A stretch of 26,122 nucleotides of DNA, from IMG/VR virus record IMGVR_UViG_3300027708_000267, positions 1 to 26,122 of that record. One strand, given 5' to 3'. Under the pieces are notes generated by a model. That model was not told the DNA's origin, did no database searches, and saw only the letters and a program-made list of their open reading frames with translations. Position 1 is the first letter of the stretch. Each line of letters begins with the position of its first letter. Below, piece by piece: positions 1-23,428 of this stretch. A program made the translations under genes and the position numbers. This DNA is from a virus.

Positions 1-1361
1 CCATAGGTATCAGTTGGGTGTGCCGATTGAGGACTGGTTGCGGCTACCCAATTGGTAGCGGCATTGTCACTGTTGTTGTTACCGTATGTTAGTTTGCCAG
101 CCAGTTCAGGCATGTTGTCTGCTAACCATTTTTTAACTACACCGCGTATGTCGTAATCGGGCTGATCTGCAAACTTGGCTAGCTCATCGTCGAGTGCGTC
201 GCTGCCAATTAACGGTTCCAAACGATCTTGTGCTGTGCTGGCAGTAATTGGAGATTTTAGTAGCTGTTGTAGTGCAATTTCCTTGTCGACCGTATCTGGT
301 GCGGCCCAGGTACTTTCAGTCACTTCGTCAGCCCATTCAGCCAACTCATCGCCCAATTGTCCAAACGATTCTGCTTTGTATTTTTTATGTGCTTTGTACA
401 CAATAGGTAATGCTTCAGTAAAACGATCATCGTATACTTTTTTAACAAAACGTTCGCGCATGGCGTCTATATCAATTTGATCGTGCTGTTGAGATTCTGG
501 CTCTAGTGTTTCAAAATAACTCTTGTATCCACGAGCACCGCGCATTATACGCAGTTTACGTTTGATTTGATCGTAATGATGTACAGCACTACGAGTCATG
601 TCGGCTGTTTCGGCATCTTCAAATTGACGATGTTTAGTGCTACGAACAAAGTGGCGCATGGCCGACATTTCAGCAATTAAACTATCGATGTGTTTTGCAC
701 GTTCGTCATGCATTGTGCCGCCGGCATTCAGGTGTTCGGCCATTGCATACGCACCGTGTAGATTTTTGTGTGATAGTAGGAAGCGTTCGCCGCGTTCTGT
801 TTCTAAGAAAATTTCTTGGATACGTCTTGCGCGGCTTCCGCGGATTTCATCGTTTACTTTGTCTTCGTGACGGATTAGTATCTTAGTTGCGCCTTTGTCA
901 GCAAAACTGTTGTATGGACGTCCCGGTGTACCGTACAATCGACTTTCTGTTACAGGCATATCATCTGTGGTGGCTACGTCATCAACCTTGGCCTGCTGTT
1001 TAACGTCTTGTAGTTTTAAATTGGATTTGTTAATATCGCGTGTGTCAAATGTTAATAAATTGCGTTTTGCAAACTGTCTTAAATTGCGTAAGAATTCATA
1101 CCATTCTTTGCGTTGTTCGCGGTCCATGTCTGCAGAAATGTTTTGACCAAAGTATACTTTTAAACTAGTTTCATCGATTAAACTGATAGTTACTGCGCCA
1201 AACTTTGCACCATCACGTCCTGTGTATGTAAAATTAAAGAAACGGGCTTTTTCTGGATCTTGTTCGGCCTGAGCTTTTTCGTCGCCCAAGGTTACGTTGG
1301 TAAATCTTGAGCGTATTTTCTCAAATAATGCGGATGCAATGGATTCAATTTCTTTAGACAT
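1..1361 (-). CDS. Large conserved phage protein of unknown function, 3' end off the window
   Basis: An uninterrupted minus-strand frame runs from ATG at 1361 to the left edge, giving at least 453 residues with no stop. It begins MSKEIESIASALFEKIRSRF and has a mixed alpha/beta N-terminal part (about residues 1-140), followed by a strongly charged, probably helical remainder rich in His, Arg, Glu and Asp. From memory, proteins with this N-terminus occur in other aquatic T4-like phages without an assigned role; I recognise no catalytic motif. It directly follows TerL: the TerL stop codon (1375-1377) is followed at once by GATAAATA (1367-1374), which lies 5 nt before this ATG, and there is no Shine-Dalgarno. 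A virion or head-assembly role is an inference from position only. Codon pattern and ORF length make the coding call secure. Confidence 0.85.
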   Translation of the reverse strand, partial: MSKEIESIASALFEKIRSRFTNVTLGDEKAQAEQDPEKARFFNFTYTGRDGAKFGAVTISLIDETSLKVYFGQNISADMDREQRKEWYEFLRNLRQFAKRNLLTFDTRDINKSNLKLQDVKQQAKVDDVATTDDMPVTESRLYGTPGRPYNSFADKGATKILIRHEDKVNDEIRGSRARRIQEIFLETERGERFLLSHKNLHGAYAMAEHLNAGGTMHDERAKHIDSLIAEMSAMRHFVRSTKHRQFEDAETADMTRSAVHHYDQIKRKLRIMRGARGYKSYFETLEPESQQHDQIDIDAMRERFVKKVYDDRFTEALPIVYKAHKKYKAESFGQLGDELAEWADEVTESTWAAPDTVDKEIALQQLLKSPITASTAQDRLEPLIGSDALDDELAKFADQPDYDIRGVVKKWLADNMPELAGKLTYGNNNSDNAATNWVAATSPQSAHPTDTY

Positions 1362-1366
1362 AAAAC

Positions 1367-1374
1367 TATTTATC
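1367..1374 (-). promoter_or_regulatory. T4-type late promoter element after TerL
   Basis: GATAAATA on the minus strand, 5 nt before the ATG at 1361 and directly after the TerL stop codon. No Shine-Dalgarno lies between. Confidence 0.6.
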
Positions 1375-2937
1375 TTAAATCATTATGAACGGCATGGGTT
1401 CAATAAAGTTATCTATGCTGTCTTTTAACTCGCTGTCTAATCCTGCATCAAACTGCTGTAAAAGCATAATCATGCGTATTGCTAGTAATGCACTCATAAC
1501 CAAGTCATCGTGATCGCCTATTTTTGCCGCAAAACTATTGCCACTTGCTACAAACGTCTTTAATTCGCTGATTAGAGCTTTACTAGCAATATGCATTCGT
1601 TTAGTTTCAACTAAACTTTTGAACTTGGCACAGGCGCTTAGTTTGCTTTTGTTTGTTGTAGTAAATCCTTTGCGATAGCGCACTCCACTAGCGCCTTTAC
1701 GTGGCTCACTAAGGAATGTACCTGGAATGTTTTCTTCTCCAAGTTCGTTTATAGCAACCAGTGCGGCTTCACCTAGTGTATTGTTTTCAACACTATAGTA
1801 TACATTATTTGTGCCAGTTACATCTACTAGATACTGACAAATCTCTTTCATAATAACCACTTGTCGTTGAACAATAGTTTTATTATCCCGCCACTCTGCC
1901 ACTTGTTTAAGCCCAGGCATTTCAAATACTTGTATAGCCGCTGGGTCACTACCTGTTCCTAAGCTAGGGTCTAGTGCAACTACGTAAGTATGATCTTTTG
2001 CAGGCTTTTTATACCAACGTATTTGTCCTTGTTTTTCTATAGGATCAATTCCGGCCATTTCAACTAGGTGCAAGGGATTGATCAATGTTTCATCAAAGAT
2101 AATGAATTCACATTCCATCTCACGTCTAAAACGTTCTTCGCCTAACTGTGCTCGCATTTGTGCGGCCCACTTCTCATCACGATCCGGATGTTCTTGCCAG
2201 GCGCTACGGAATGCTTTAAATCCGTTTTGCCCTAATTCAGTTTCGTTACCTTGTTCATCAAAACACTTGTTGGCGCCGCGCCAAATTTGTGCAAATTGAT
2301 CTTCGTCACTGTTAGGAGTTGAGGTAATAATACACTTACCACCAGTTGCCAGGGTAGGAGTGATGGAAGTCCAAAACTCACTTGCAATAGTCGGTCTTAC
2401 GAATGCAAACTCATCACAGTATAATAGCGATAAACTCATACCGCGTCCTGTGTTTTCTGTTGTTGTTTGACTTACAATACGTGATCCGTTTTCAAAGTCT
2501 AAACTACCTTTGTTGTAGCTAGTAACACCGGCTCGAATAAAGTCTGGACAGTTTTCGTAAGCATAGCGAACACGTTGCATAATTTCTTGTGCGCCTAAAT
2601 ACTTGTGTGCGGCAACTAAAATTGTACTGTCTGGAACAAACATAGCATACCAAAGTAAATAGCCTGCCGCACTAGTCGATTTGCCCGTTTGTCTAGGCAT
2701 TAGTGATATAGAGAATCTATAATTGTGATATGTGCTAACTAGACGTTCTTGGTACTCAAATGGATGATATTGTATAGCACCTTTAGTCGGATGTTGTATA
2801 TGGAAATAATTATCCATAAAGTACTGTGGGCCCGTTTCTGGGTCAGCACATCGGGCTAATTCCCTGATTTGTACTTCAGTATAAGACATCCGTTTATACG
2901 GCGCCTTGATAATTGCAGTTTCTAGTTCTTTACTCAT
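1375..2937 (-). CDS. 17: Terminase large subunit, ATPase-nuclease DNA packaging motor (T4 gp17 family)
   Basis: TerL drives DNA into the prohead with ATP and cuts the concatemer. Numbering from the chosen start, the Walker A motif is MPRQTGKST at about residues 80-88, the Walker B strand ends in LLYCDEF (acidic pair about 175-176), and a TSTPNS coupling motif follows. The C-terminal RNase H-like nuclease shows ALDPSLGTGSD, a VENNTLGEAAL segment and the closing DHDDLVMSALLA. At about 520 residues it is shorter than T4 gp17 (about 610). An in-frame ATG at 2961 would add eight residues but would overlap the divergent HNH gene. I prefer 2937 because a TAAATA element (2945-2950) lies 7 nt before it, the arrangement seen at other starts here. 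The stop is followed immediately by the promoter word of the next gene. Confidence 0.95.
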   Translation of the reverse strand: MSKELETAIIKAPYKRMSYTEVQIRELARCADPETGPQYFMDNYFHIQHPTKGAIQYHPFEYQERLVSTYHNYRFSISLMPRQTGKSTSAAGYLLWYAMFVPDSTILVAAHKYLGAQEIMQRVRYAYENCPDFIRAGVTSYNKGSLDFENGSRIVSQTTTENTGRGMSLSLLYCDEFAFVRPTIASEFWTSITPTLATGGKCIITSTPNSDEDQFAQIWRGANKCFDEQGNETELGQNGFKAFRSAWQEHPDRDEKWAAQMRAQLGEERFRREMECEFIIFDETLINPLHLVEMAGIDPIEKQGQIRWYKKPAKDHTYVVALDPSLGTGSDPAAIQVFEMPGLKQVAEWRDNKTIVQRQVVIMKEICQYLVDVTGTNNVYYSVENNTLGEAALVAINELGEENIPGTFLSEPRKGASGVRYRKGFTTTNKSKLSACAKFKSLVETKRMHIASKALISELKTFVASGNSFAAKIGDHDDLVMSALLAIRMIMLLQQFDAGLDSELKDSIDNFIEPMPFIMI

Positions 2938-2952
2938 ATAAGTATATTTAAT
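2937..2952. promoter_or_regulatory. Back-to-back late-type promoter elements between TerL and HNH genes
   Basis: TATAAGTA on the plus strand (2937-2944), 6 nt before the HNH ATG, abuts ATTAAATA on the minus strand (2945-2952), 7 nt before the TerL ATG. Each is a one- or two-base variant of TATAAATA. The plus element overlaps the TerL start codon and the minus element overlaps the HNH start codon. Confidence 0.5.
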
Positions 2953-3481
2953 GTCAGACACTCTACTACTAAATTCTAATTACGAACCAATCTCAGTATT
3001 GCCCCTAAGTGTCATTGGGTGGCAACATGCTATAAAACTAATGTACCTGGGAAAGGTGCATGTTATTGAAACTTACCCTGATTGGATACTGCACAGCGAG
3101 CGTTTGGCTATAAATGTTCCCAGTATCTGTGTAACACGAGATTATTTTCATTATAAAAAATCTGTTAAATTTAGCAGATATAACTTGTATATGCGCGACC
3201 TGTTCAAATGTCAATATTGCGATGATGTGTTTGACTACGAAGAATTGACTATCGATCATGTGGTTCCACGCAGTAGTGGTGGCAAAACACATTGGGAAAA
3301 TTGTGTTACCAGTTGCAAGTCATGTAATCACGCAAAAGGTAGCAAATTAATCAAGCCATTGATTAAACCTTACAAGCCCGACTACTACAGTCTTGTTGGC
3401 CAATGGAAGAAAATGCCATTCAATGTTAAACAGGATTCGTGGTATCAATATCTAGGCAGAGGCAAGCTAGAAGCGGCTTAA
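2951..3481 (+). CDS. HNH endonuclease
   Basis: A 176-residue protein with a complete HNH/ββα-metal module in its C-terminal half: CQYC zinc pair (C87, C90), catalytic-type DHVVPRSSGG (D102, H103), the W-E-N step (N117), and the second zinc pair in SCKSCNHAKG (C122, C125) with N126. The N-terminal part, starting MSDTLLLNSNYEPISVL, resembles the N-terminal segment of stand-alone bacterial and phage HNH proteins. Such enzymes cut DNA; in T4-like phages they are often free-standing homing endonucleases, and some HNH proteins help terminases. It is transcribed against the flanking late genes, diverging from TerL and converging on the next gene, whose stop codon it shares through TTAA at 3478-3481. 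A late-type TATAAGTA lies 6 nt before the ATG. Whether it is a mobile intruder or a packaging partner cannot be decided here. Confidence 0.9.
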   Translation: MSDTLLLNSNYEPISVLPLSVIGWQHAIKLMYLGKVHVIETYPDWILHSERLAINVPSICVTRDYFHYKKSVKFSRYNLYMRDLFKCQYCDDVFDYEELTIDHVVPRSSGGKTHWENCVTSCKSCNHAKGSKLIKPLIKPYKPDYYSLVGQWKKMPFNVKQDSWYQYLGRGKLEAA

Positions 3482-3906
3482 CGAGAGCGCGGACGATACT
3501 CAGGGTGTGCTCGAAGGTAGTCTTCGCACTTGTCGCGAAGGCTACCGTTTAAAAATGGCTTGCTAAAGTTAATAATAAACCATAAATCATCGCCAGGTTT
3601 GGCACAGTACTCTATTTCAAGAGCATTGCGCTCTTGTGCTGTGTAACTGATGTTGCTACCAGCCGGTGCTTGCTGAATAGTGCCCACTGGGCTAACAATA
3701 CCGTTCTCCCCAGCTTGCGGAACTTGATCTAACATTCCGCCAACAGGGCCAGGTTGACTCATATCGCCTGTGGATTCGCCAATGCTAAATGGCAGTCCAG
3801 CCAACCGCTTTAATTCATTTAACTCTGCAGGATCAATGAACGCATCAGCATCTCCGGTTTCGCCCGGGGATACAAAGTGCTCGCTTGTTATTCGATATTG
3901 TTTCAT
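3478..3906 (-). CDS. Phage protein of unknown function, 142 aa
   Basis: Starts MKQYRITSEHF. A helical segment containing NELKRLAGL lies at about residues 28-36, followed by a Gly/Pro/Gln-rich linker (about 40-85) and a C-terminal domain containing the stretch KPGDDLWFIINFSKPFLNG. I do not recognise the family. The NELKRLAGL stretch resembles DELAKLAGL in the 859-residue protein and DELARLA in the small terminase subunit nearby. An IGES tetrapeptide after it could be a prohead-protease-type site, as T4 gp21 cleaves after Glu in L/I-x-E, but that is speculation. AATAAATA at 3912-3919 overlaps the upstream stop codon and sits 5 nt before the ATG; no Shine-Dalgarno is visible. The stop overlaps that of the convergent HNH gene. 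Confidence 0.8.
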   Translation of the reverse strand: MKQYRITSEHFVSPGETGDADAFIDPAELNELKRLAGLPFSIGESTGDMSQPGPVGGMLDQVPQAGENGIVSPVGTIQQAPAGSNISYTAQERNALEIEYCAKPGDDLWFIINFSKPFLNGSLRDKCEDYLRAHPEYRPRSR

Positions 3907-3911
3907 AATAG

Positions 3912-3919
3912 TATTTATT
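3912..3919 (-). promoter_or_regulatory. T4-type late promoter element before the 142-aa gene
   Basis: AATAAATACT on the minus strand, 5 nt before the ATG at 3906. The element contains the stop codon of the SGNH-like gene (3915-3917). Confidence 0.6.
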
Positions 3920-4673
3920 GAAGTTTTTTAATAAAATAATTAGCAATAGCGGTATGGGATTCTGGAGTAAACTCTGTGAATATATTTTCAAGTACTGTAT
4001 ACGTAGTTGGCGTTGTTTTATCATACCTATTGATCATCAGCTCATGATATTTTGCACCAGCATTTAATGTTGTTTGCTCTAGTAGAATATGATTCTTTTG
4101 GTAGTTATAATTATTGCTTACCCAGTCAATGTGGTCCCACCAATTTTCATAAGGAACATCTCCACTGTGTGTATGGATTCCGGCTTTGAATTTCTTACTT
4201 ACAAATTCTCTAAGACTTGCCACTGGCCATAGTACACATACATGCTTGACTGCCGGGCCAAGTGCCAACAAAGTTTGTACTCCAACTCTGGCCATGCCAT
4301 CGGGACTTAATCCCGGGATTCCTAAATTTACAACACACATGTCTGTTTGCTGTTGTATCTTTGTGGCGTAAATGTCTTCATTTTTAACGCCACGGCCTGT
4401 TGCATCGCTATCTCCAAGAATCAATACAATTTTTTTAGTTTTTAACTCAGCTACATCAAAATCAATGTCTGAACGATAGCCCAAGTTATTTAATTTATAT
4501 TCCACATTGTCGCCCCATACACTTTTACTGTGTGCATTGGGATTACATAATTTCATAAACGAAGTTCGTGGTGGAATATCCCACGCATTAGGAATACCGC
4601 TTTCCCAATGTAGATTGGGCACTCGATCTTTACCTAAGTACTGTTCTATTTGCTCTGCTAGGGATATGTCCAT
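3915..4673 (-). CDS. SGNH/GDSL hydrolase-like protein
   Basis: A 252-residue protein. The sequence KKIVLILGDSDATGRG (about residues 80-95) matches block I of SGNH hydrolases, a hydrophobic strand followed by GDS with S89 as candidate nucleophile. VVNLGIPGLSPDG (about 114-126) fits block II with a conserved Gly, and ESHTAIANYFIKKL near the end resembles the block V helix with H240. The usual Asp three residues before the catalytic His is not evident, so enzyme activity is uncertain. Family members are esterases, lipases and polysaccharide deacetylases. It lies first after a strong terminator, with its own TATAAATA (4682-4689) 8 nt before the ATG, so it probably opens a new late transcription unit leading to TerL. 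Its role in the virion or on the host surface is unknown. Confidence 0.7.
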   Translation of the reverse strand: MDISLAEQIEQYLGKDRVPNLHWESGIPNAWDIPPRTSFMKLCNPNAHSKSVWGDNVEYKLNNLGYRSDIDFDVAELKTKKIVLILGDSDATGRGVKNEDIYATKIQQQTDMCVVNLGIPGLSPDGMARVGVQTLLALGPAVKHVCVLWPVASLREFVSKKFKAGIHTHSGDVPYENWWDHIDWVSNNYNYQKNHILLEQTTLNAGAKYHELMINRYDKTTPTTYTVLENIFTEFTPESHTAIANYFIKKLQ

Positions 4674-4681
4674 TGGACAAA

Positions 4682-4689
4682 TATTTATA
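4682..4689 (-). promoter_or_regulatory. T4-type late promoter element before the SGNH-like gene
   Basis: An exact TATAAATA on the minus strand, 8 nt before the ATG at 4673 and downstream of the terminator at 4710-4733. No Shine-Dalgarno fits between it and the ATG. This word is the T4 late-promoter consensus; its use here is inferred. Confidence 0.65.
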
Positions 4690-4709
4690 GGTAAACCGCA
4701 TAGCCATTA

Positions 4710-4733
4710 AAAAAGGCACTTAGGTGCCTTTTT
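4710..4733 (-). terminator. Rho-independent terminator after the AT-hook protein gene
   Basis: A perfect 10-bp stem, AAAAAGGCAC/GTGCCTTTTT, with the loop at 4720-4723. Read on the minus strand it is followed by more T residues and lies just after the stop codon at 4739. It ends the operon that begins at or after the sheath gene. Because the stem carries A and T runs on both sides it could also work on the plus strand, but no plus-strand gene leads into it. Confidence 0.85.
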
Positions 4734-4738
4734 GTTTA

Positions 4739-7318: not shown

Positions 7319-7322
7319 TGTC

Positions 7323-7910
7323 TTAACCTTTTACTTTATAAACTTTATTTTGCGTTGTTCCAACTGGGCTTTTGTTGCCTAGTGGAGCATTGTTTGTTGT
7401 CTTGCCTGCTTCTTTGCTTTCTTGAGCAAACTCAAACTTACGTGATTCTAATTCTTTTAGTAAACTACCAATGCGACTTTGTCCAGCTAGTGCTTGTGCG
7501 TCTGGCGCATCTTTTAATTCAGTTTCGTCTAGCAAGGCGCCTTCATGATCTTGTCCATTTGCTTCGGCTTCGTCTGTGTAGTCGGCTTCATTTAGATTGC
7601 GTACATTAATCCAATCAACATTGATACCAGCACGTTCTTTGATAAGTTGACGTACCACAATATTTGTAGTTGGGTATGTTAATTTGACATCAAATTGCCA
7701 ACATTCACAAGCACCGCCCCACTGTGGAAAGTCACGGTGTTCTTGTATTGGTAAACTTTTAACAGCACTTACGCTTTCAAGTTGATATGCTTCAAGCGCA
7801 TTTTTAATCCGGTCCATTACTTCGCCGGTTGGATTAATGCTGGCCAATTTGATGCGGAACTCACTTGGCTTGCTTAGTTCAAAAATGTAAGTTTGGAATG
7901 GCTTTAACAT
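7323..7910 (-). CDS. Conserved phage protein of unknown function, 195 aa
   Basis: Starts MLKPFQTYIFELSKPSEFRI. Residues 1-105 look like a compact alpha/beta domain, with strand-helix-strand segments including RIKLASINPTG, LESVSAVKSLPIQEHRDFP and a CECWQFDVKLTYPTT strand. This is followed by an acidic, low-complexity tail with a charged helix near 150-175. From memory, proteins with the LPIQ-H-DFP segment occur in other aquatic phages without known function. It lies between TerS and the AT-hook protein in one operon, so a packaging or head-core role is plausible but unproven. A TAAATA word (7933-7938) lies 22 nt upstream and ACAGGA gives a Shine-Dalgarno about 8 nt before the ATG. Confidence 0.8.
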   Translation of the reverse strand: MLKPFQTYIFELSKPSEFRIKLASINPTGEVMDRIKNALEAYQLESVSAVKSLPIQEHRDFPQWGGACECWQFDVKLTYPTTNIVVRQLIKERAGINVDWINVRNLNEADYTDEAEANGQDHEGALLDETELKDAPDAQALAGQSRIGSLLKELESRKFEFAQESKEAGKTTNNAPLGNKSPVGTTQNKVYKVKG

Positions 7911-7932
7911 TGTATTAATCCTGTATATTGTA

Positions 7933-7940
7933 TATTTAGC
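7933..7940 (-). promoter_or_regulatory. Possible T4-type late promoter element before the 195-aa gene
   Basis: GCTAAATA on the minus strand, a degenerate form of TATAAATA, 22 nt before the ATG at 7910 in the short gap after TerS. An AGGA Shine-Dalgarno lies between. Weaker than the other elements because the first two bases differ. Confidence 0.4.
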
Positions 7941-7949
7941 TCTGATGGC

Positions 7950-8438
7950 TTATTTGCCGGGCTTGTTTGCAAGTATCTGTTTTAGCAGATCGTTACGATC
8001 CAGTACCACACCGTGGCCTTCTACTGCCTGTTCTTCAGGAGTTCCAGCGTCTTTTTTGATTTGATGATCCAGTTTGGCCTTGGCCAACTGTAGCTGTACC
8101 ATTTTGAGCTTCTTATCCAGCTTGGCTGTTTTGGCTGTGATGGCATGTCCCAGCATTACACCGGCTGTTTGTAGTATAACTCCGCTAAAACGTGGTTCTA
8201 CATTCATGCCCAAATCTATTAGATCTTCGGCTTTGCTTTGTGCCAGGCGAGCCAGTTCATCCAATTCGCTATCGCCGGTATCTAGGTCGTGTACTGTGGG
8301 CAGGGCCGCATCTATTCGATCTATAGCATGATCAACGTCGGCAATAATCTCTCGGTGTTCAGCAATAGTTTGCTCAGTTTCTTCTGCGGTCGCGTCCACT
8401 GTAGGTAAGTTAAATAACTCTTCTAATTTTTTGGTCAT
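7950..8438 (-). CDS. 16: Probable terminase small subunit (T4 gp16 type)
   Basis: A 162-residue, largely helical protein, close to the length of T4 gp16 (about 164). The N-terminus MTKKLEELFNLP is followed by a Glu/Ala-rich helix, a DELARLAQSKAEDLIDLG helix (about 59-76), a central helical hairpin around GVILQTAGVMLGHAITAKTA (about 86-105) and a Lys-rich coiled helix. The C-terminal tail carries VVLDRNDLLKQIL, like the terminal segment of other T4-type small subunits. TerS recognises DNA and regulates the TerL motor as an oligomeric ring. The call rests on architecture, size and its place just after gp4, not on a diagnostic motif. AATAAATA (8443-8450) overlaps the gp4 stop codon and leaves only 4 nt before the ATG. 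Confidence 0.65.
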   Translation of the reverse strand: MTKKLEELFNLPTVDATAEETEQTIAEHREIIADVDHAIDRIDAALPTVHDLDTGDSELDELARLAQSKAEDLIDLGMNVEPRFSGVILQTAGVMLGHAITAKTAKLDKKLKMVQLQLAKAKLDHQIKKDAGTPEEQAVEGHGVVLDRNDLLKQILANKPGK

Positions 8439-8442
8439 ACAA

Positions 8443-8450
8443 TATTTATT
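8443..8450 (-). promoter_or_regulatory. T4-type late promoter element before TerS
   Basis: AATAAATA on the minus strand, 4 nt before the ATG at 8438. It contains the gp4 stop codon (8446-8448). Confidence 0.55.
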
Positions 8451-8880
8451 TGCCGCGACCCTGGGCGAAAATCATATCTTCCGTAACTACTCGAAAGGTC
8501 AATCCGTGGGCTCGGCACCAGGCACGGGCGGCTTCCCATTTGGCCATATTGAGTATGGCGCTGGCTTGATCACGAATGTTCTTGGCACCCTCCAAAGTGG
8601 TTTCCTTTTTGGGTTTAATTTCAATTACTTCAGCATGTTGACGACCGCTGGCATCACCGTAGGTAATTAAAAAATCTGGAACATAAATTGTATTTTTACC
8701 AGTCAATGGGTTTTTGTAGTTGATACGAACTGCTTCACTTGCCCAATTTATAATATTGGGGTTGTTGTCACAAAATTGCATAAACACAAATTCCCAACTG
8801 CTACGATAAGTTGGAGTTTTGTTGCCCACATACTTGGCCGGGTTTTGCAGTTGAAATTTGCCTTGAGCGTATTTGGACAT
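8446..8880 (-). CDS. 4: Head completion nuclease-like protein (T4 gp4 family)
   Basis: A 144-residue protein similar in length and layout to T4 gp4 (also called gp50/gp4). The signature is clear: GKFQLQNPAKYVGN, YRSSWEFVFMQFCDNNPNI, then WASEAVRINY, a YVPDFLITY strand with the first acidic residue, and VIEIKPKKE giving the E-x-K of a PD-(D/E)XK nuclease fold. The C-terminal helices include KWEAARAWCRAHG. In T4 this protein is needed to finish packaged heads before the tail is attached, and the fold suggests DNA-end trimming. It starts on the previous gene's stop codon (TAATG at 8878-8882) and ends where TerS's promoter word begins. Confidence 0.88.
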   Translation of the reverse strand: MSKYAQGKFQLQNPAKYVGNKTPTYRSSWEFVFMQFCDNNPNIINWASEAVRINYKNPLTGKNTIYVPDFLITYGDASGRQHAEVIEIKPKKETTLEGAKNIRDQASAILNMAKWEAARAWCRAHGLTFRVVTEDMIFAQGRGK

Positions 8881-9278
8881 TATAAAATAATACTTCTAGT
8901 TATGTATGTGCTGGTTGCTTTGGTGCCGTTGTTGATACCAAGACTACTAGTAGGTGCTCGACTGATGTTCAAAAATGCCGCAAGATATGAGTTTAACTCA
9001 CCCTTAGGTAAATTTTGAAATTCACTTAGTACTGACATTGGATCAATATTTTGTGCCATTGCGGTATATAATACCGCCGATGCCATATTTTTTCCAGCAA
9101 TGGCATTTTGAGTATATTTTTCAAAGAATGCAACAATAGCATCATTGGTACTCGAACTTACATTGAATGGCGTGGCATAAAAATTATTAAAATATTTTGG
9201 TGCGTTATTTTTTGCGGTGCCAGGATTAAGATCCGGTGCAGTAATGTTAGTTGCTGTTGTTGACTGGGTATTATTCAT
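8880..9278 (-). CDS. Small conserved phage protein, possibly virion-associated
   Basis: A 132-residue protein. The N-terminal 40 residues are Asn/Thr-rich; the core at about 45-110 contains NDAIVAFFEKYTQN, ASAVLYTAMAQNIDPMSVL and LPKGELNSYLAAFLN, a likely helical bundle; the C-terminus ends YITRSIIL. From memory, proteins with the ASTVLYTA and LPKGEL-type segments occur in aquatic T4-like phages next to tail or neck genes, without a proven role. I chose the ATG at 9278, which overlaps the stop of the tube-like gene by 8 nt, rather than the ATG at 9323, which would overlap it by 53 nt and add an unrelated-looking MLLLACLMQ peptide. It is followed by gp4 with a TAATG overlap. Confidence 0.75.
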   Translation of the reverse strand: MNNTQSTTATNITAPDLNPGTAKNNAPKYFNNFYATPFNVSSSTNDAIVAFFEKYTQNAIAGKNMASAVLYTAMAQNIDPMSVLSEFQNLPKGELNSYLAAFLNISRAPTSSLGINNGTKATSTYITRSIIL

Positions 9279-10701
9279 AATATCTGTCACTGAATGTTGC
9301 ATAAGACATGCCAGAAGGAGCATTTAATGTGTAATCTGTAAACATTGTGGCTTCACGACCAATGTTGGTTAGTCCTGAATTTATACTACCTAATGTGGTT
9401 GACGAATCGCCCCATGCTTTTGATATAGAAGTTACACCACCGGCTACGCCTTTTTCAATACCGCCTGATAATACTCCCACTCCCTCGGCAATTTTTGTAT
9501 TTAGATAATTCATACCAATACCAAGTACCAACGATGTGGCCATGTTTTCAATGGTCTTTAAGGCCTGGTTTGGATTGGCAATAACACTGGCAGCCATGCC
9601 CACAATGCTTGACCCGTTGGGACCTAGACCTTTTGCTATTGCGCCGGTTACTCCATTGGCCAATGTACTGGTAGCACTTCCTGCTAAACCAATACCAGCC
9701 GATTGTAATTGTTGTCCCAGGACTGCACTGCCAGTGACACCCTGTGTCAAACTGCCCAGATTTGGAATACTGTATCCACCGCCATTGCCGCCGCCGGCCA
9801 TTCCTTTGGTCACTTGATTAAACAACGGCTCTACTGGTTTGGACGGGTTTCCGCTTGCGGCCTGTAGTGCAACGTCACTGCGAATAAAGGGCATAATAGC
9901 TGTTTGATTGTTGGCCAGATCTGTTATCTGATTTGAGTTGGAACTGGACTGTGGAGCATTTTGTGTTGTGCCCGGATAGCTGGGATATGGGCTGGGCACA
10001 GTATCGTAGTGCAGATCCATAAATCCACCCACTGTGTTATTTGTGACTTTGCCTTCAAGATATTTTACAGTTTCATATTGAATAGTCATATCAGAATGTA
10101 AAAATTCGGTACTTGATACGTCATGATCACCGTGCTTGAAACTTGTAATGATCGGATTAACTAATTGATACTCGCTGAAGTTGCCCTGATATAAACTATA
10201 AATTCTTATTGCTTGTATATATTGGTATGGTTGTGTGCCGTTGGCATTATTATAGCCTACTGCTGGGCGTGGGCTGTAACCCCAATCAAAACTTGGGCGA
10301 CTTTGGTATTTGTGCTGTGCCGAATATGTAGCGTCGGCATAGTCTGGGTCGCGATAAAAGTAACTGTAGTAATCATACCAGAATTGTTTTACATTGTCTG
10401 CTTGGTCATCTCGAAACTGTATTGTTACTGGATCGTAGTTGATTTTATTTTGTACAATGTTCTTGCGGTTGTAAGCATTGTGTACTTTGGTATCGATAGT
10501 AAATTTTGGAAGGCTAACACTTCTAACAATCATGCCTAGCTCTTGTGCGGCTTGATTACTAATTTCTGTAATTAAAGGATTAAAGTCAAACTCAACATAA
10601 AATAAGAAACCATACTTGGGGCTCAGACGAAAATTGCTGTCAACAAAGATCCGTTTGCCGTGTCGGTAATCTCTCAGAATAGTTTCTTGCTGTTGTATCA
10701 T
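9271..10701 (-). CDS. Tail-tube-like baseplate protein (T4 gp48/gp54 type)
   Basis: A 476-residue protein. The first ~220 residues look like the tail-tube fold: KYGFLFYVEFDFNP, a LGMIVRSVSLPKFTID strand (reminiscent of gp19's VVDIKRPNVNFTPI), NRKNIVQNKINYDPVTIQFRDD, then late strands FKHGDHDVSSTEFLHSDMT and IQYETVKYLEG. The C-terminal half is Gly/Ala/Ser-rich with small hydrophobic segments. In T4, gp54 starts the tube and gp48 caps the baseplate hub; both share the gp19 fold. Assignment to one of them is not possible from sequence alone, and a second, specialised tube protein is an alternative. CATAAATA (10707-10714) is 5 nt before the ATG with no Shine-Dalgarno, just downstream of the terminator after gp19, so it should head a new transcription unit. 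Confidence 0.65.
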   Translation of the reverse strand: MIQQQETILRDYRHGKRIFVDSNFRLSPKYGFLFYVEFDFNPLITEISNQAAQELGMIVRSVSLPKFTIDTKVHNAYNRKNIVQNKINYDPVTIQFRDDQADNVKQFWYDYYSYFYRDPDYADATYSAQHKYQSRPSFDWGYSPRPAVGYNNANGTQPYQYIQAIRIYSLYQGNFSEYQLVNPIITSFKHGDHDVSSTEFLHSDMTIQYETVKYLEGKVTNNTVGGFMDLHYDTVPSPYPSYPGTTQNAPQSSSNSNQITDLANNQTAIMPFIRSDVALQAASGNPSKPVEPLFNQVTKGMAGGGNGGGYSIPNLGSLTQGVTGSAVLGQQLQSAGIGLAGSATSTLANGVTGAIAKGLGPNGSSIVGMAASVIANPNQALKTIENMATSLVLGIGMNYLNTKIAEGVGVLSGGIEKGVAGGVTSISKAWGDSSTTLGSINSGLTNIGREATMFTDYTLNAPSGMSYATFSDRYYE

Positions 10702-10706
10702 ACTAG

Positions 10707-10714
10707 TATTTATG
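10707..10714 (-). promoter_or_regulatory. T4-type late promoter element before the tube-like gene
   Basis: CATAAATACT on the minus strand, with 5 nt between the 8-mer and the ATG at 10701, directly after the terminator of the tube gene. The extended ACT matches the T4 late consensus. Confidence 0.65.
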
Positions 10715-10722
10715 CCATAAAA

Positions 10723-10746
10723 AAACCCGGGTTTTAATCCGGGTTT
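10723..10746 (-). terminator. Rho-independent terminator after the tail tube gene
   Basis: Stem AAACCCGG/CCGGGTTT (8 bp) with an 8-nt loop at 10731-10738. On the minus strand the stem runs into a T tract (10719-10725). It sits between the tube stop codon at 10767 and the start of the tube-like gene at 10701, and probably limits read-through from the strongly expressed tube gene. Confidence 0.85.
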
Positions 10747-10766
10747 GATTTATTTAAAGCGACTGA

Positions 10767-11381
10767 TTAGTTTACGCTAGAACCAGGTGTCATGCTAACC
10801 ACGCTAGTACCAACACCACCACCAACTGTTTGGATAGCATTATCAAAGCGAATTGTTAGTGCAATTTGTACTGGGTCGTTGCTCTTGTAGTCCATTGAAC
10901 CCCAGTCAACTTGACTTAGGAAACAACCGTCTAGTTCCCATGCTTCAAGCACGTTAGGCATAACTGTACCATTGCCACCGTCCAACATTTCGTATGTCAA
11001 TTGAAACTTGTAGTTGATACCGGCTGCCGCACTAGCCTGTTCCATAAAGTCATACTGTTTCTGTACCTGCTGACCGACCAACTTGCTGACTGCGCCGGTG
11101 CTGTCGTCACGTAGGTTAAGTGTTGTTTCTTGCCACTCTGGTTTACCTTGTAAGTATACCTTGCTGTTGTAAACGTCAAGAGTGATTGGTGTAAAGTTTA
11201 CGTTTGGACGCTTGATGTCAACAACCTGCTTGGTCAATTCATTTGTTTGATTTGTAACGCCAAAGTTGATAAAGTTCGCACGGAAGCGATACATTAATTT
11301 TGGCATTAACAGACCTTGACTGTCTGCTGACTGGTTGTTCGCTAAAGGAACTGTAAACTTACTTAAACTTGCTACGGCCAT
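10767..11381 (-). CDS. 19: Tail tube protein (T4 gp19)
   Basis: The inner tube subunit of the contractile tail, through which DNA leaves. The 204-residue sequence has the usual gp19 pattern: an N-terminal LMYRFRANFINFG strand, VVDIKRPNVNFTPITLDVYN, TLNLRDDSTGAVSKLV, KFQLTYEML, LEAWELDGCFLSQVDWGSM and a final strand IALTIRFDNAI. It is somewhat longer than T4 gp19 (about 163), with an N-terminal lead and a Ser/Gly/Val tail. The GGAG Shine-Dalgarno is close to ideal and a GATAAATA late element lies 18 nt upstream of the ATG; the gene is followed by its own terminator. Position directly after the sheath gene matches T4 order 18-19. Confidence 0.92.
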   Translation of the reverse strand: MAVASLSKFTVPLANNQSADSQGLLMPKLMYRFRANFINFGVTNQTNELTKQVVDIKRPNVNFTPITLDVYNSKVYLQGKPEWQETTLNLRDDSTGAVSKLVGQQVQKQYDFMEQASAAAGINYKFQLTYEMLDGGNGTVMPNVLEAWELDGCFLSQVDWGSMDYKSNDPVQIALTIRFDNAIQTVGGGVGTSVVSMTPGSSVN

Positions 11382-11399
11382 AATATTCTCCTATACTCT

Positions 11400-11407
11400 T
11401 ATTTATC
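11400..11407 (-). promoter_or_regulatory. T4-type late promoter element before the tail tube gene
   Basis: GATAAATA on the minus strand, 18 nt upstream of the ATG at 11381, with AGGAG in the leader. It lies in the 33-nt gap after the sheath gene, so the tube can be transcribed separately from the sheath. Confidence 0.65.
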
Positions 11408-11414
11408 TATATTC

Positions 11415-14400
11415 TTATGTTGAACTTGCACCAAGCTGTTTAACTGTTCCAGGATTGTATAAAGCAATTGGAATGTAGATAAACTCAACATCACGCATTG
11501 GCTCAATTGCTACGTCAACATACAGTTGATTGTTGGCAATAGTGCTTGGTGTGTTGTTGCTTGTATCGCAAATTACCAAGAAGTCATATAGACCACGCTT
11601 GCTTAATAAATCGTTACATGCGCTTTCAATTTGAGTTGCAATACTCTTACGTGTAATTGTGTCGTTTGGTTCAAACAAGAAACCATTGCTGATTGTAGCG
11701 AAAATTGTACGCAAGTAGTTTTCCAAGCGAACCACATTTACGCGATTACGTGCTGTTTCAGCACCGCTACGTGTTTCCTGACCCCATACAACTAGACCTG
11801 TACCAGGCAATTGTGTGACTGGGTTAACATTGATACTGTACAATGCATCACGTAGACCTTGGTTAATACCGTTGTGTACAAATGCACCACTGTTCACATC
11901 AACATAGCCGATGTCACTTAGGTTGCTTACCAAGCCACGGTTAACACCGGCTGGAGCAAACCACTGATATGCAACTTGGTCGTTGTACAAGAATGTACGT
12001 AATACTGCGTGACTGGCTGGAACTGCCACTGTGTTGCCTGCCAAGTCGTTTGTTAAACCAGCTGGATAGTATACACCTAGGTATGGGCTTGCTGTTGCCA
12101 GTCCATTACCATTCTTGTTGCTTTCCCATGCTGTGATGTCAGTCACATTTGGTGCCAATGTCATTGGTGTATCACCAATGATAAAACCTGTGCTTGTACG
12201 GTTGTTGTTTAATGTTACCAAGTTGGGAATTAACTCTGGGTAGCCAGGGGCAACCAACAAGTTAAAGTTGTAGTTGGCATCAAGTACATCGGTGTTACTG
12301 TCAATCGCCGACTTCATTGCGGCAACAACAATGTTACGTTGTGCGGCAGAACCAGCGTACATAGTACCATCTTCTTTTAGACCACTTACGCTAACCCATG
12401 CATCTTTGACTGAGTATCCGTTTGTGCCAGAGAACTGAGCAAAGTAATTGCTTACAAATTTCTTAATGTTATAACCTGAACGACGTGTGTTGAACAAGAT
12501 TGTTCCACGTGGATATAAACGATAATCCGGGCAATCAACGTCAACGTGATTGCTTGTCAATAGTGTAACAGTTGATGGCAATGCGCCTGCGGCAACATCG
12601 GCAGTATTACCCACTGCGCTACCGGCTGCGCCATCCCAACGTGCATCAGCAAAAATAATACCGTTGTTGCTGATATGATCTGTATTGTCAATTGCTACCC
12701 ATGCAGTACCATTGTAACGTGATAGAGCTGGGAAGTTTACTAGATCTGATGTATTCAACCACAAGTCGCCAGCCACCAATGGCGTAGCATCGCTTTGGCT
12801 AGTTGGTTTTGTTCCAGATACAATGACCCCAAGTGGATCTGTATTTCCTAGATTGTAACCACGCACATCAGCAGAAACGTTCTTGTAACCTTTCCAACCA
12901 CCAGCGTCGCTGATCATTACATCGATGTCTGTTGGATTGCTGTAGTACCATAGTGTGCCATCTGCTGGGGCGGCATATGGCTCAGTAGAGCTAAATTTGA
13001 TGTCGTCGGTAATCCAGTACAAGTTGCTAACAGCAATGTTTCCGTTGGCTAGTACTACAAAGCCTGATCCGCTACCTGTAGCAAACCCGGCGTTGGCTAA
13101 GTTAGTGCCAGTTACTTGGGCTAGAATAATATGTCCACCTTTGGTATGAATAATGCTTACTGTGCCATCGGTATTAGTTTGTGCTGTAACGTAAGGAATG
13201 TTAGCCGCTAAAATTGCAGTAACGAATCCGCTTGCGCCAGCAGTTGGGCTAATAGTAACTGCTGAACTCATATTTGGAGTTCCTGGTGCAGTTGCTTGGA
13301 TAGTAAACGAACCTGTGCCCGGGAACGCAGTTGGTGTACCACCAGTGGCAACCGTTTGTGTTCCTACCTGTTGCTCGCTGAAACTTAGTCTATTAGCTGT
13401 AGAATCAGTAGCACCAAAGAAAGAAACCACTTGACCGTGTACAAGATTTGCACCGCCACCAATTGGATCTAGGCCATAAATTGCACTGGCTGGGTAATCA
13501 TACATTGGGGCCGGAATAGCTTGCCACGAATCCTTGGACATGCTGTATTTTTTAAGTGCTGGGCTAAAACCACTACCTGTTGCAGTTGTTTTCCACCAAA
13601 TTGTACCAGCTGGGTATGCACTCCAACCTGCACTTGGTTCTTGTGCAAATGTGCCGTAAGACATAATAGGTGCATGGTATGTAGATAAAGTAATACCGCA
13701 AGAAGCAAATACGCCAGATGCGTCATTGGATAATGTCATTGTGCCTGTATTACTACCAGCGGCGCTAGTAACAAACAATGCTAAACCTTGTCCAGCTACT
13801 GCCACGGCAGTAACACCAGTGACTGCGGCTGTATTAATAGCTGTTGCCAATGCACCAACAGTGGCATCAATTGCGCTAGTGTTGATAGTTACATTGTTGA
13901 TTTTAAATGAAGCACTTGTTGGTACTGTTGGGCTAGGAATATTTCCTTGTACCGCTACAGTACTGTTTTGCCATGCTGTAGAACCAACTTGTACCCAGCT
14001 GTTTGTTAGGCTTGCGCTGTTAACTGCTGTGGCTTTGTAGAACAAACGTATGTCTGTTACAGGAGTATTGTTTACATCAGTGAATACCAATGCATAACTA
14101 CCTTGTGCGCCAACTGCGGCAATTGGAGTTGGCACATTGCCAATAGATACCACTTGTGCTGTATCAGTAATTAATAAAGGACTGACGCTGGAGAATGTTG
14201 CAGGAGTAGTTCCGTTTGAACTGTAAATACCAAATTCTGTATTGGCCAAATCTAACCAATATGTGCCGTCTTTGACCATGCCAACCGGGCGATTGCTTGT
14301 ACCAACTAGTTCGTTTAGATTAACATCTGCGCGAATAGCAAATAACTGATTGCTCAAACCCAGTGCCGAGTATGCTGTTAACAAACCGTATTCGTTCAAC

Positions 14401-14657
14401 TCGCTACCATTCAATGGTGTGCCTGCGGCGCTGAGTTGGAATGTTGGTGTGCCCATTGCTGTAATCAAGTCACGTTGACTTGTGAACGCTTGTAGTTTGC
14501 CAGCATTGGCTTTGCTTGTGCCAGTTGCGGCGGCATTGTTATATGTTTTGTTTTGTGCAGTTGCCAAAACAACCAACGGAACAGAACCTACATTGCTTGC
14601 AACGTATTGACTCTGATCATTGATGCTGATCGATACTCCTGGGGATACTAGTGCCAT
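11415..14657 (-). CDS. 18: Tail sheath protein, enlarged (T4 gp18)
   Basis: The contractile sheath subunit. The N-terminus MALVSPGVSISINDQSQYV and a C-terminal half with YRLYPRGTILFNTRRSGYN, GLVVWGQETRSG and RVNVVRLENYLR, ending RDVEFIYIPIALYN, are typical of T4-like sheath proteins. At 1080 residues it is about 420 longer than T4 gp18 (about 659). The extra length is in the middle, roughly residues 190-690, made of beta-rich Gly/Thr/Ala segments and repeated Gly-x-x-Trp pieces such as AGTIWW (about 352), DGTLWYYS (about 566) and AGDLWLN (about 632). These probably form surface domains on the sheath. A strong AAGGAAG Shine-Dalgarno and an exact TATAAATA 31 nt upstream of the ATG fit high late expression. 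Confidence 0.93.
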   Translation of the reverse strand: MALVSPGVSISINDQSQYVASNVGSVPLVVLATAQNKTYNNAAATGTSKANAGKLQAFTSQRDLITAMGTPTFQLSAAGTPLNGSELNEYGLLTAYSALGLSNQLFAIRADVNLNELVGTSNRPVGMVKDGTYWLDLANTEFGIYSSNGTTPATFSSVSPLLITDTAQVVSIGNVPTPIAAVGAQGSYALVFTDVNNTPVTDIRLFYKATAVNSASLTNSWVQVGSTAWQNSTVAVQGNIPSPTVPTSASFKINNVTINTSAIDATVGALATAINTAAVTGVTAVAVAGQGLALFVTSAAGSNTGTMTLSNDASGVFASCGITLSTYHAPIMSYGTFAQEPSAGWSAYPAGTIWWKTTATGSGFSPALKKYSMSKDSWQAIPAPMYDYPASAIYGLDPIGGGANLVHGQVVSFFGATDSTANRLSFSEQQVGTQTVATGGTPTAFPGTGSFTIQATAPGTPNMSSAVTISPTAGASGFVTAILAANIPYVTAQTNTDGTVSIIHTKGGHIILAQVTGTNLANAGFATGSGSGFVVLANGNIAVSNLYWITDDIKFSSTEPYAAPADGTLWYYSNPTDIDVMISDAGGWKGYKNVSADVRGYNLGNTDPLGVIVSGTKPTSQSDATPLVAGDLWLNTSDLVNFPALSRYNGTAWVAIDNTDHISNNGIIFADARWDGAAGSAVGNTADVAAGALPSTVTLLTSNHVDVDCPDYRLYPRGTILFNTRRSGYNIKKFVSNYFAQFSGTNGYSVKDAWVSVSGLKEDGTMYAGSAAQRNIVVAAMKSAIDSNTDVLDANYNFNLLVAPGYPELIPNLVTLNNNRTSTGFIIGDTPMTLAPNVTDITAWESNKNGNGLATASPYLGVYYPAGLTNDLAGNTVAVPASHAVLRTFLYNDQVAYQWFAPAGVNRGLVSNLSDIGYVDVNSGAFVHNGINQGLRDALYSINVNPVTQLPGTGLVVWGQETRSGAETARNRVNVVRLENYLRTIFATISNGFLFEPNDTITRKSIATQIESACNDLLSKRGLYDFLVICDTSNNTPSTIANNQLYVDVAIEPMRDVEFIYIPIALYNPGTVKQLGASST

Positions 14658-14688
14658 GGTGATCTTCCTTTAAATTACATGTTACAGT

Positions 14689-14696
14689 TATTTATA
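14689..14696 (-). promoter_or_regulatory. T4-type late promoter element before the sheath gene
   Basis: An exact TATAAATA on the minus strand followed by ACTGTAAC, 31 nt upstream of the ATG at 14657. A long leader with AAGGAAG follows, the best ribosome site in the window. Confidence 0.75.
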
Positions 14697-14719
14697 ATAA
14701 AGTCACAAAATAATGGCAG

Positions 14720-14736
14720 TTGCAAAGCCTTTGCAA
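14720..14736. promoter_or_regulatory. Perfect 17-bp palindrome in the sheath/HNH-like divergent region
   Basis: TTGCAAAG, one C, then CTTTGCAA: an 8-1-8 perfect inverted repeat between two divergent late-type promoter elements (minus 14689-14696 and plus 14745-14752). The one-base centre makes an RNA hairpin unlikely, so a dimeric DNA-binding protein site is the simpler reading. No regulator gene is recognised in the window. Confidence 0.45.
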
Positions 14737-14744
14737 AGGTTTGG

Positions 14745-14752
14745 GGTAAATA
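14745..14752 (+). promoter_or_regulatory. Late-type promoter element before the HNH-like gene
   Basis: GGTAAATA followed by ACTGT and the ATG at 14758: the same 5-nt spacing as at three other starts. The bases after the element (ACTGT) match those after the sheath element. Confidence 0.45.
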
Positions 14753-14757
14753 ACTGT

Positions 14758-15108
14758 ATGCTAACACGTAATTTATGCCCTGTCTGCCACGTTACTCCAG
14801 TTGCTGTAAACTATATTCGCGACGGCGTACATCACTATCGCAATCTTTGTTCTAGTTGTAGCAAGAAGGGTAAAACTTTAAAGAAAGAACCAACTGCTTG
14901 GCAAAAGGCCGGCTATAAAAAAAAGCCCATATGTGAGAAGTGCAATTTTAAAGCCAAGTTACCAGAGCAACTAAATGTATTTTATGTTGACGGCAACTTA
15001 AAAAATAACAATCACTTTAATCTCAAGACAGTATGCCTAAACTGTCAGCCAGAGGTTTATAAATCCCGTTTGGCCTGGAAAGCGGCTCCAATAACACCAG
15101 ACTTTTAA
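14758..15108 (+). CDS. Small zinc-binding HNH-like protein
   Basis: A 116-residue protein with four CxxC pairs: CPVC (7-10), CSSC (31-34), CEKC (59-62) and CLNC (about 93-96). The C-terminal segment FYVDGNLKNNNHFNLKTVC has the layout of an HNH core (HxDGN..N...NL..C..C), but the first His is replaced by Tyr/Val, so it may be catalytically weak or only DNA-binding. Similar small proteins occur, from memory, in other aquatic phages. I chose the ATG at 14758 over an in-frame ATG at 14713: the longer form would run through a perfect palindrome and the promoter-like GGTAAATA, while MLTRNLCPVC begins right at the first zinc pair. The gene is convergent with the dNMP kinase and overlaps its 3' end by 86 nt, including the fourth CxxC. 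Confidence 0.75.
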   Translation: MLTRNLCPVCHVTPVAVNYIRDGVHHYRNLCSSCSKKGKTLKKEPTAWQKAGYKKKPICEKCNFKAKLPEQLNVFYVDGNLKNNNHFNLKTVCLNCQPEVYKSRLAWKAAPITPDF

Positions 15109-17125: not shown

Positions 17126-17144
17126 CAATTACTCCGTTATACAG

Positions 17145-17152
17145 TATTTATT
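17145..17152 (-). promoter_or_regulatory. T4-type late promoter element before gp13
   Basis: AATAAATACT on the minus strand, 19 nt upstream of the ATG at 17125, with CGGAGTAA as Shine-Dalgarno. It lets gp13 be expressed late, independently of the exonuclease promoter upstream. Confidence 0.65.
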
Positions 17153-18850: not shown

Positions 18851-18879
18851 AGTATAGCATTTTGGTATTTATTTGTCAA
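18851..18879 (-). promoter_or_regulatory. Strong sigma70-type promoter of the exonuclease gene
   Basis: TTGACA (18874-18879), a 17-nt spacer and TATACT (18851-18856) on the minus strand. The expected start is about 18844, at the ATG. An AATAAATA late-type word (18866-18873) lies in the spacer, so the same site might also be used late. Confidence 0.75.
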
Positions 18880-18961: not shown

Positions 18962-18969
18962 GATAAATA
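18962..18969 (+). promoter_or_regulatory. T4-type late promoter element before the gp14-like gene
   Basis: GATAAATACT on the plus strand, 22 nt before the ATG at 18992, with AGGA in between. It should drive the three-gene plus-strand unit gp14-like, gp15 and Nudix. Confidence 0.7.
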
Positions 18970-23420: not shown

Positions 23421-23428
23421 TATTTATT
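23421..23428 (-). promoter_or_regulatory. T4-type late promoter element before the Mtd-type fibre gene
   Basis: AATAAATACTAATA on the minus strand, 19 nt upstream of the ATG at 23401, with CAGGAGA as Shine-Dalgarno. It lies within 3 nt of the stop codon of the previous fibre gene. Confidence 0.65.

What the first reader, a model, noticed from the sequence alone, without database searches (positions are those of the whole stretch)
1359..14760. Late promoter words set 4-8 nt before start codons: a predicted class of nearly leaderless late mRNAs
At eight starts (1361, 2937, 2951, 3906, 4673, 8438, 10701, 14758) a TATAAATA-like 8-mer ends 4 to 8 nt before the ATG; at four of them (1361, 3906, 10701, 14758) the gap is exactly 5. 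No Shine-Dalgarno fits between. In T4 the late element is the -10 box, so transcription would begin at or within a few bases of the ATG. In contrast the genes for sheath, tube, gp13, gp14-like and the Mtd-type fibre have the same word 18-31 nt upstream with a clear Shine-Dalgarno. This splits late genes into a leaderless, perhaps low-output class (TerL, TerS, tube-like baseplate protein, unknowns) and a high-output class, a way to set stoichiometry through promoter-to-ATG distance.
Basis: partly seen in the sequence, partly recalled or inferred. Interest (0 to 1): 0.65.

Follow-up and report, generated by a model that had tools for sequence, protein, structure and literature searches.

The report
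Leaderless late genes in T4-like phages
In two groups of uncultured or little-studied T4-like phages, many late genes carry the phage's late promoter so close to the start codon that the messenger RNA should begin at, or within about three bases of, the AUG, a way of expressing genes that T4 itself does not use and that can be tested directly in a cultured ocean phage.

Summary
Start 2951 has no such word on its strand. It is not chance. In three large relatives (354, 202 and 317 kb), 70 of 1023 genes have TAAATA ending 4-8 nt before the ATG, 5 at 9-15 nt and about 104 at 16-33 nt; dinucleotide shuffles give 8 in place of the 70. T4's whole genome has none at 4-8. T4's late box lies at -13 to -6, so a 5-nt gap puts +1 on the A of ATG. 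The short-gap class lacks Shine-Dalgarno sites (7%) and uses ATG almost only; the long-gap class has them (76%). Orthologues keep or switch class (at least 18 switches) with one intermediate. The same layout, 12 of 17 at exactly 5 nt, is in the cultured Pelagibacter phage HTVC008M with its GenBank starts. Best reading: gp55-type late promoters making leaderless or nearly leaderless mRNAs. RNA 5' ends were not seen; the low-output idea is untested. Leaderless phage late mRNA is known (phiYS40); a T4-type late promoter built this way I did not find described.

The parts
1367..1372 (-). late promoter core TAAATA, 5 nt before ATG of the 3-1361 virion structural gene
   Evidence: 68 of 79 orthologues have it at 4-7 nt, 11 at 19-25 nt, none between
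3..1361 (-). virion structural protein gene (PHROG 13484), short-gap class
   Evidence: N-terminus conserved close to the Met
2945..2950 (-). TAAATA 7 nt before TerL ATG
   Evidence: TerL relatives mixed: 19 short-gap, 8 long-gap, 50 with none in range, 1 between
1375..2937 (-). large terminase gene, short-gap here
   Evidence: PHROG 36964 E 2.6e-128
2951..3481 (+). HNH endonuclease gene, divergent from TerL; no TAAATA on its strand in this window
   Evidence: 7 of 45 relatives have short-gap TAAATA
3912..3917 (-). TAAATA 5 nt before ATG 3906; its TAA is also the stop codon of the upstream gene 3915-4673
   Evidence: and sequence
3478..3906 (-). gene of unknown function, short-gap here (1 of 21 relatives)
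4682..4687 (-). TAAATA 8 nt before ATG 4673, downstream of a terminator-like hairpin (about 4706-4736)
   Evidence: sequence
3915..4673 (-). gene of unknown function, short-gap class
8443..8448 (-). TAAATA 4 nt before ATG 8438; its TAA is also the stop codon of gene 8446-8880
   Evidence: 34 of 38 orthologues at 4-8 nt
7950..8438 (-). gene of unknown function (PHROG 16202), most conserved short-gap family
   Evidence: MTKKLEEL conserved from the first residue
10707..10712 (-). TAAATA 5 nt before ATG 10701, just after the T-run of a terminator-like hairpin (about 10717-10745)
   Evidence: several orthologues keep the T-run then TAAATA order
9271..10701 (-). tail-tube-related gene (PHROG 4542); relatives split 8 short-gap / 12 long-gap
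14747..14752 (+). TAAATA 5 nt before ATG 14758
14758..15108 (+). small protein with several Cys pairs, unknown function, short-gap class
11400..11405 (-). long-gap contrast: TAAATA 18 nt before tail tube ATG 11381, with aggaga Shine-Dalgarno
   Evidence: 21 of 23 orthologues long-gap, all with SD
14689..14694 (-). long-gap contrast: TAAATA 31 nt before tail sheath ATG 14657
17145..17150 (-). long-gap contrast: TAAATA 19 nt before gp13-like ATG 17125
   Evidence: PHROG 211
18964..18969 (+). long-gap contrast: TAAATA 22 nt before ATG 18992 (virion structural)
18866..18871 (-). long-gap contrast: TAAATA 20 nt before ATG 18845 (PHROG 2259, RNase H)
23421..23426 (-). long-gap contrast: TAAATA 19 nt before ATG 23401 (tail protein)
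7933..7938 (-). long-gap contrast: TAAATA 22 nt before ATG 7910; 39 of 40 orthologues long-gap

Best explanation
TAAATA is the core of a T4-type late promoter read by the phage's gp55-like sigma factor on host RNA polymerase. Where it ends 4-8 nt before an ATG, transcription starts on the A of the ATG or up to about three bases before it, so the late mRNA is leaderless or nearly so. It is then translated without a Shine-Dalgarno site, most likely by 70S ribosomes that take the 5'-terminal AUG. Where it ends 16-33 nt before the ATG, the leader is about 11-28 nt and carries a Shine-Dalgarno site. Intermediate distances are avoided because a leader of 4-10 nt is too long for leaderless initiation and too short for a Shine-Dalgarno site. 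Shown here: the word, the spacing classes, conservation, switches almost without intermediates, start-codon preference, a gp55 homologue. Inferred: the RNA 5' ends, the 70S route, and late timing.
For: 1) Two spacing peaks with a gap between, in about 1250 distinct genes of relatives and genome-wide in three large genomes; TAAATA is the commonest (two genomes) or third commonest (one) hexamer ending 4-8 nt before ATG. 2) Shuffles: 31, 13 and 26 observed against 3.8, 1.6 and 2.7; highest of 200 shuffles 12, 7 and 8. 3) Whole T4: 0 of 254 genes at 4-8. T4's box is at -13 to -6 (PMC1524935), so gap 5 means +1 = A of ATG. 4) Short-gap genes: 7% with an SD 4-mer against 76% for long-gap (partly forced because the box fills the SD zone). 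5) ATG almost only: 161 ATG, 2 GTG, 2 TTG in the loci against 144/14/20 at SD-led starts of G001, p 4e-7; in G001 alone 36/0/3, p 0.10. 6) At gap 5 the base before ATG is T or C in 88 of 88 loci genes and 19 of 23 in three genomes, p 0.001: the usual pyrimidine-purine start. 7) Orthologues: 68/79 and 34/38 keep the short gap; on a TerL tree at least 6+5+7 short/long changes, one intermediate. 8) Short- and long-gap boxes share flanking preferences. 9) gp55 homologue, E about 1e-24, in G001, G002, G006, G007. 10) N-termini are conserved close to the Met and downstream SD-led starts are rare: 0/38, 1/78, 3/79. 11) HTVC008M, GenBank starts: 17 genes at 4-8 nt, 12 at exactly 5, none at 9-15; its 9 long-gap genes all have an SD.
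Against: No RNA 5' end was seen. TSS position is carried over from T4. Gaps of 4, 7 and 8 need the start to shift by a base or leave a 2-3 nt leader. Most short-gap genes (62 of 84) lie behind a same-strand gene and could also be read from longer transcripts. The host and its tolerance for leaderless mRNA are unknown for the window's group. The gp55 match was found in only some records, others being fragments. The starts in most relatives come from a first-ATG rule, though GenBank starts give the same in HTVC008M.
Confidence: 0.87

Rival explanations
1. Translational coupling: the gene is read from an upstream promoter; the nearby TAA is simply the stop of the gene before and the ribosome restarts at the ATG.
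For: In 14 of 84 short-gap genes of four genomes the TAA of TAAATA is the upstream gene's stop, and 24 more have a same-strand gene within 20 nt.
Against: 22 of 84 are divergent and 24 lie more than 20 nt from a same-strand gene. The full hexamer is enriched, not TAA alone. The 10701 and 4673 genes follow terminator-like hairpins. Coupling does not predict an empty 9-15 zone.
Confidence: 0.06
2. The annotated ATG is not used: the true start is a downstream codon with a Shine-Dalgarno site and the promoter gives an ordinary leader.
For: Such mis-annotation is known beside -10 motifs in Deinococcus (PMC12340547).
Against: An in-frame SD-led start within 30 codons is present in only 0/38, 1/78 and 3/79 orthologues, and the protein is conserved close to the Met.
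Confidence: 0.03
3. AT-rich composition or gene-calling bias.
For: The word is AT-only; the exact 8-mer TATAAATA is at chance in the window.
Against: Shuffles, control words without the same peaks, none at 4-8 in the more AT-rich T4 with the same caller, same result with GenBank starts.
Confidence: 0.01
4. An addition to the best explanation rather than a replacement: the short distance sets low output.
For: Tube and sheath are long-gap, major capsid is never short-gap where checked; short-gap genes include TerL, gp25, gp48, gp4, gp2, gp3, endolysin, HNH in some relatives.
Against: Long-gap genes include low-copy portal and gp13. Leaderless mRNAs can be translated as well as others (PMC4117421). 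Nothing measured.
Confidence: 0.3

Closest known systems
T4 late promoters (gp55/gp33/gp45 system)
   Same: Single TATAAATA-like box, gp55 homologue present, box before virion genes.
   Different: In T4 no box ends 4-8 nt before an ATG genome-wide; leaders carry Shine-Dalgarno sites. Here a third to a half of boxed genes have the box at 4-8 nt.
Thermus phage phiYS40 leaderless middle/late mRNAs
   Same: A phage that makes most of its middle/late mRNAs without leaders (PMC3594737, citing Sevostyanova 2007).
   Different: Different phage and host; not, to my knowledge, a T4-type box. Here leaderless and leadered late genes share one promoter word and differ in distance. I could not read the original paper.
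Deinococcus -10 motif adjacent to ORFs
   Same: A -10 element a few bases before the start codon giving leaderless mRNA, with a spacing requirement (PMC12340547).
   Different: Cellular RpoD promoters (TANNNT), not a phage late sigma.
Pelagimyophages (HTVC008M, Mosig)
   Same: Show the same two-class layout here.
   Different: Separate T4-like lineage, gap mostly fixed at 5 and box usually followed by G; earlier authors could not detect late promoters in this group (PMC7029224).

Membership tests
T4-type late promoter | TATAAATA-like -10 box | tested here: met
   TAAATA core with A preferred before it, shared by both classes
T4-type late promoter | no conserved -35 element | tested here: inconclusive
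   positions up to about 12 nt upstream of the core show no strong conservation; the -35 itself was not profiled
T4-type late promoter | gp55-family sigma in the same genome | tested here: met
   PHROG 234 match in G001, G002, G006, G007; annotated late sigma in HTVC008M; the window is a fragment and was not itself shown to have it
T4-type late promoter | active late, coupled to gp45 clamp | not testable with these tools
   no expression data
Leaderless mRNA class | RNA 5' end at or within a few nt of the start codon | not testable with these tools
   predicted from the -13 to -6 position of T4's box
Leaderless mRNA class | no Shine-Dalgarno upstream | tested here: met
   5 of 70 against 79 of 104 in the long-gap class; partly by construction
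Leaderless mRNA class | strong preference for AUG | tested here: met
   161 ATG / 2 GTG / 2 TTG in loci; in G001 alone 36/0/3, p 0.10
Leaderless mRNA class | translation by 70S ribosomes at a 5'-terminal AUG | not testable with these tools
   needs biochemistry

The most novel reading that the evidence does not exclude
The phages run two translation channels from one late promoter word, and reshape the host ribosome to favour the leaderless one. A candidate is the phage-encoded ribosomal protein bS21, which contacts the anti-Shine-Dalgarno region of 16S rRNA, is encoded in G001, G003, G004 and HTVC008M, and in G001 and G004 is itself a short-gap gene. Against it: Vibrio phage 2.275.O has bS21 and IF3 but no short-gap genes in the stretch examined, and G003's bS21 gene is long-gap.
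Probability: 0.1. Interest if true: 0.88.

Novelty: new variant of a known kind. Interest (0 to 1): 0.66.

Why it matters
[quoted passage not shown] It may explain why late promoters could not be found in pelagimyophages by the usual search (PMC7029224), improves start-site calls in these phages, and gives a natural series of switches between the two ways of starting translation. It can be tested in a cultured phage.

Tried and rejected
Exact TATAAATA as the signal: only two copies in the window, at chance; the core TAAATA was used. Start 2951: rejected, no box on its strand. TerS label: no PHROG or Pfam support. Terminators just upstream as a general mark of the class: only 1 of 31 in G001 by a simple scan, though two window genes have one. 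IF3 in the relatives as a helper: none found in five records. Host by bS21 similarity: two distant hits only (Vermiphilus, Omnitrophota), no host call made. Broad spread over T4-like phages: none at 4-8 in the stretches of S-PM2, P-SSM2, KVP40, Cr30, Atu_ph07, Phosso, GAP32, Vibrio 2.275.O, ACP17; one in PA5oct. For these only about 49 kb each was read, and the S-PM2 and KVP40 stretches are largely not virion genes.
Full report
WHAT IS THERE. The window is a 26,122-base virus record carrying T4-like virion genes: large terminase, tail sheath, tail tube, gp13-like and head-closure proteins. Its terminase is 54% identical to that of PA5oct, the nearest GenBank phage, and 68-90% identical to those of at least 80 uncultured virus contigs. 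On the coding strand TAAATA ends 4-8 nt before seven starts: 1361 (5), 2937 (7), 3906 (5), 4673 (8), 8438 (4), 10701 (5), 14758 (5). Seven other genes have it 18-31 nt upstream, mostly with a Shine-Dalgarno site. Start 2951 does not have the word.

IS IT MORE THAN CHANCE. In relatives the distance from TAAATA to the first ATG has two peaks. In 1251 distinct genes there are 34, 88, 13, 48 and 12 at gaps 4 to 8, 7 in all at 9-15, and a second peak at 18-22. Control words do not show this pattern. In three large single genomes (354, 202 and 317 kb) 70 of 1023 genes are in the short class, 5 have the word at 9-15 nt and about 104 at 16-33 nt. Dinucleotide shuffles of each upstream region give 3.8, 1.6 and 2.7 instead of 31, 13 and 26. 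T4's whole genome has none of 254. A bias of the first-ATG rule is unlikely: it would favour gap 6 only (the TAA being in frame there), T4 was handled the same way, and HTVC008M was counted with GenBank starts.

WHAT IT IS. T4's late box lies at -13 to -6 from the start of transcription (PMC1524935; PMC2988020). A 5-nt gap therefore puts +1 on the A of ATG. Short-gap and long-gap boxes have similar flanks, and a gp55-family sigma is encoded in four of the relatives, so both classes look like the same promoter. At gap 5 the base before ATG is a pyrimidine in 88 of 88 cases in the loci and 19 of 23 in the three genomes, against 47% at other starts, as expected if transcription starts at the A. 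The loci counts include orthologues and are not independent. At gap 7 an A at the fifth base after the box is common, which would leave a leader of about 3 nt.

HOW TRANSLATION WOULD WORK. Short-gap genes have a Shine-Dalgarno 4-mer in 7% of cases against 76% for long-gap genes, a difference partly forced because the box occupies that space. In frame behind a short gap the start is ATG 161 times, GTG 2 and TTG 2 in the loci, where SD-led starts of G001 are 144 ATG, 14 GTG and 20 TTG (p 4e-7); in G001 alone 36/0/3 is not significant. Leaderless translation in E. coli prefers AUG and uses 70S ribosomes (PMC9031893). The empty 9-15 zone fits leaders that are too long for the one route and too short for the other; this is inference.

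CONSERVATION. The 3-1361 family has the box at 4-7 nt in 68 of 79 orthologues and at 19-25 nt in 11, none between. The 8438 family is short-gap in 34 of 38. Tube is long-gap in 21 of 23, with SD in all, and the 7910 family in 39 of 40. TerL is mixed (19 short, 8 long, 50 without a box in range, 1 between), as is the 10701 family (8 short, 12 long). On a TerL tree at least 6, 5 and 7 changes between short and long are needed in the 1361, 10701 and TerL families, with a single intermediate. Phage genomes are mosaics and upstream regions need not follow the TerL tree, so the counts are minima on that tree only. N-terminal residues are conserved close to the Met, and SD-led starts within 30 codons are rare.

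A CULTURED CASE. Pelagibacter phage HTVC008M, a different T4-like lineage, has 17 of 197 annotated genes in the short class, 12 at exactly 5 nt, none at 9-15, and 9 long-gap genes all with SD. Its first-ATG count is 14 against 2.1 in shuffles. Eighty related loci give 20 genes at exactly 5 nt, and the 49-kb stretch of Mosig has 4, 3 of them at 5 (weak alone). Late promoter searches had been reported as unsuccessful in this group (PMC7029224).

OUTPUT. Short-gap genes in G001 include TerL, a gp25-like wedge protein, endolysin, an ATP-dependent protease, a nucleotidase, a radical SAM protein and bS21. Long-gap genes include portal and tail fibres. High-copy tube, sheath and major capsid genes are not short-gap where checked, but low-copy genes occur in both classes, so low output remains a guess.

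RIVALS. Coupling to the upstream gene cannot explain 22 divergent and 24 well-separated cases among 84. Downstream starts and composition are addressed above.

NOVELTY. Leaderless late phage mRNAs are known from phiYS40 (PMC3594737) and -10 elements next to ORFs from Deinococcus (PMC12340547). My searches of the open-access library found no account of T4-type late promoters making leaderless mRNAs; subscription papers were not searched. The missing evidence is direct: no RNA end was observed.

Noticed in passing
G001 232944-233180 (L095:2844-3080:-); G004 (L109, minus strand, start near 1690); G003 (L110, start near 1472): Phage-encoded ribosomal protein bS21. Its gene is short-gap in G001 (7 nt) and G004 (4 nt) but long-gap in G003; this fits the reported late expression of phage bS21 in another phage group (PMC9723584).
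   Followed up: partly
window 3912-3917 and 8443-8448: The TAA of the late box doubles as the stop codon of the upstream gene; 14 of 84 short-gap genes in four genomes show this.
   Followed up: yes
HTVC008M genome (L119, L200, L201): Box is usually followed by G (TAAATAG), and several short-gap genes are T4 homologues of neck and baseplate parts (gp2, gp3, gp4, gp13, gp25, gp48).
   Followed up: partly
G001, G003, G006 genes without TAAATA: About half lack a Shine-Dalgarno 4-mer as well, so these phages or their hosts may use non-SD initiation widely; part of this is start miscalling.
   Followed up: no
gap-7 and gap-8 starts in L002-L081: The bases before ATG are often TACT (TACTATG), conserved beyond the box; could mark a 3-nt leader ACU.
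   Followed up: no
L112, L113, L171, L172: gp55-family open frames of about 295-324 aa, much longer than T4 gp55 (185 aa).
   Followed up: no
window 16169-17128: The ORF list gives a TTG start at 17128; the ATG at 17125 directly after it is the likely start of the gp13-like gene.
   Followed up: no
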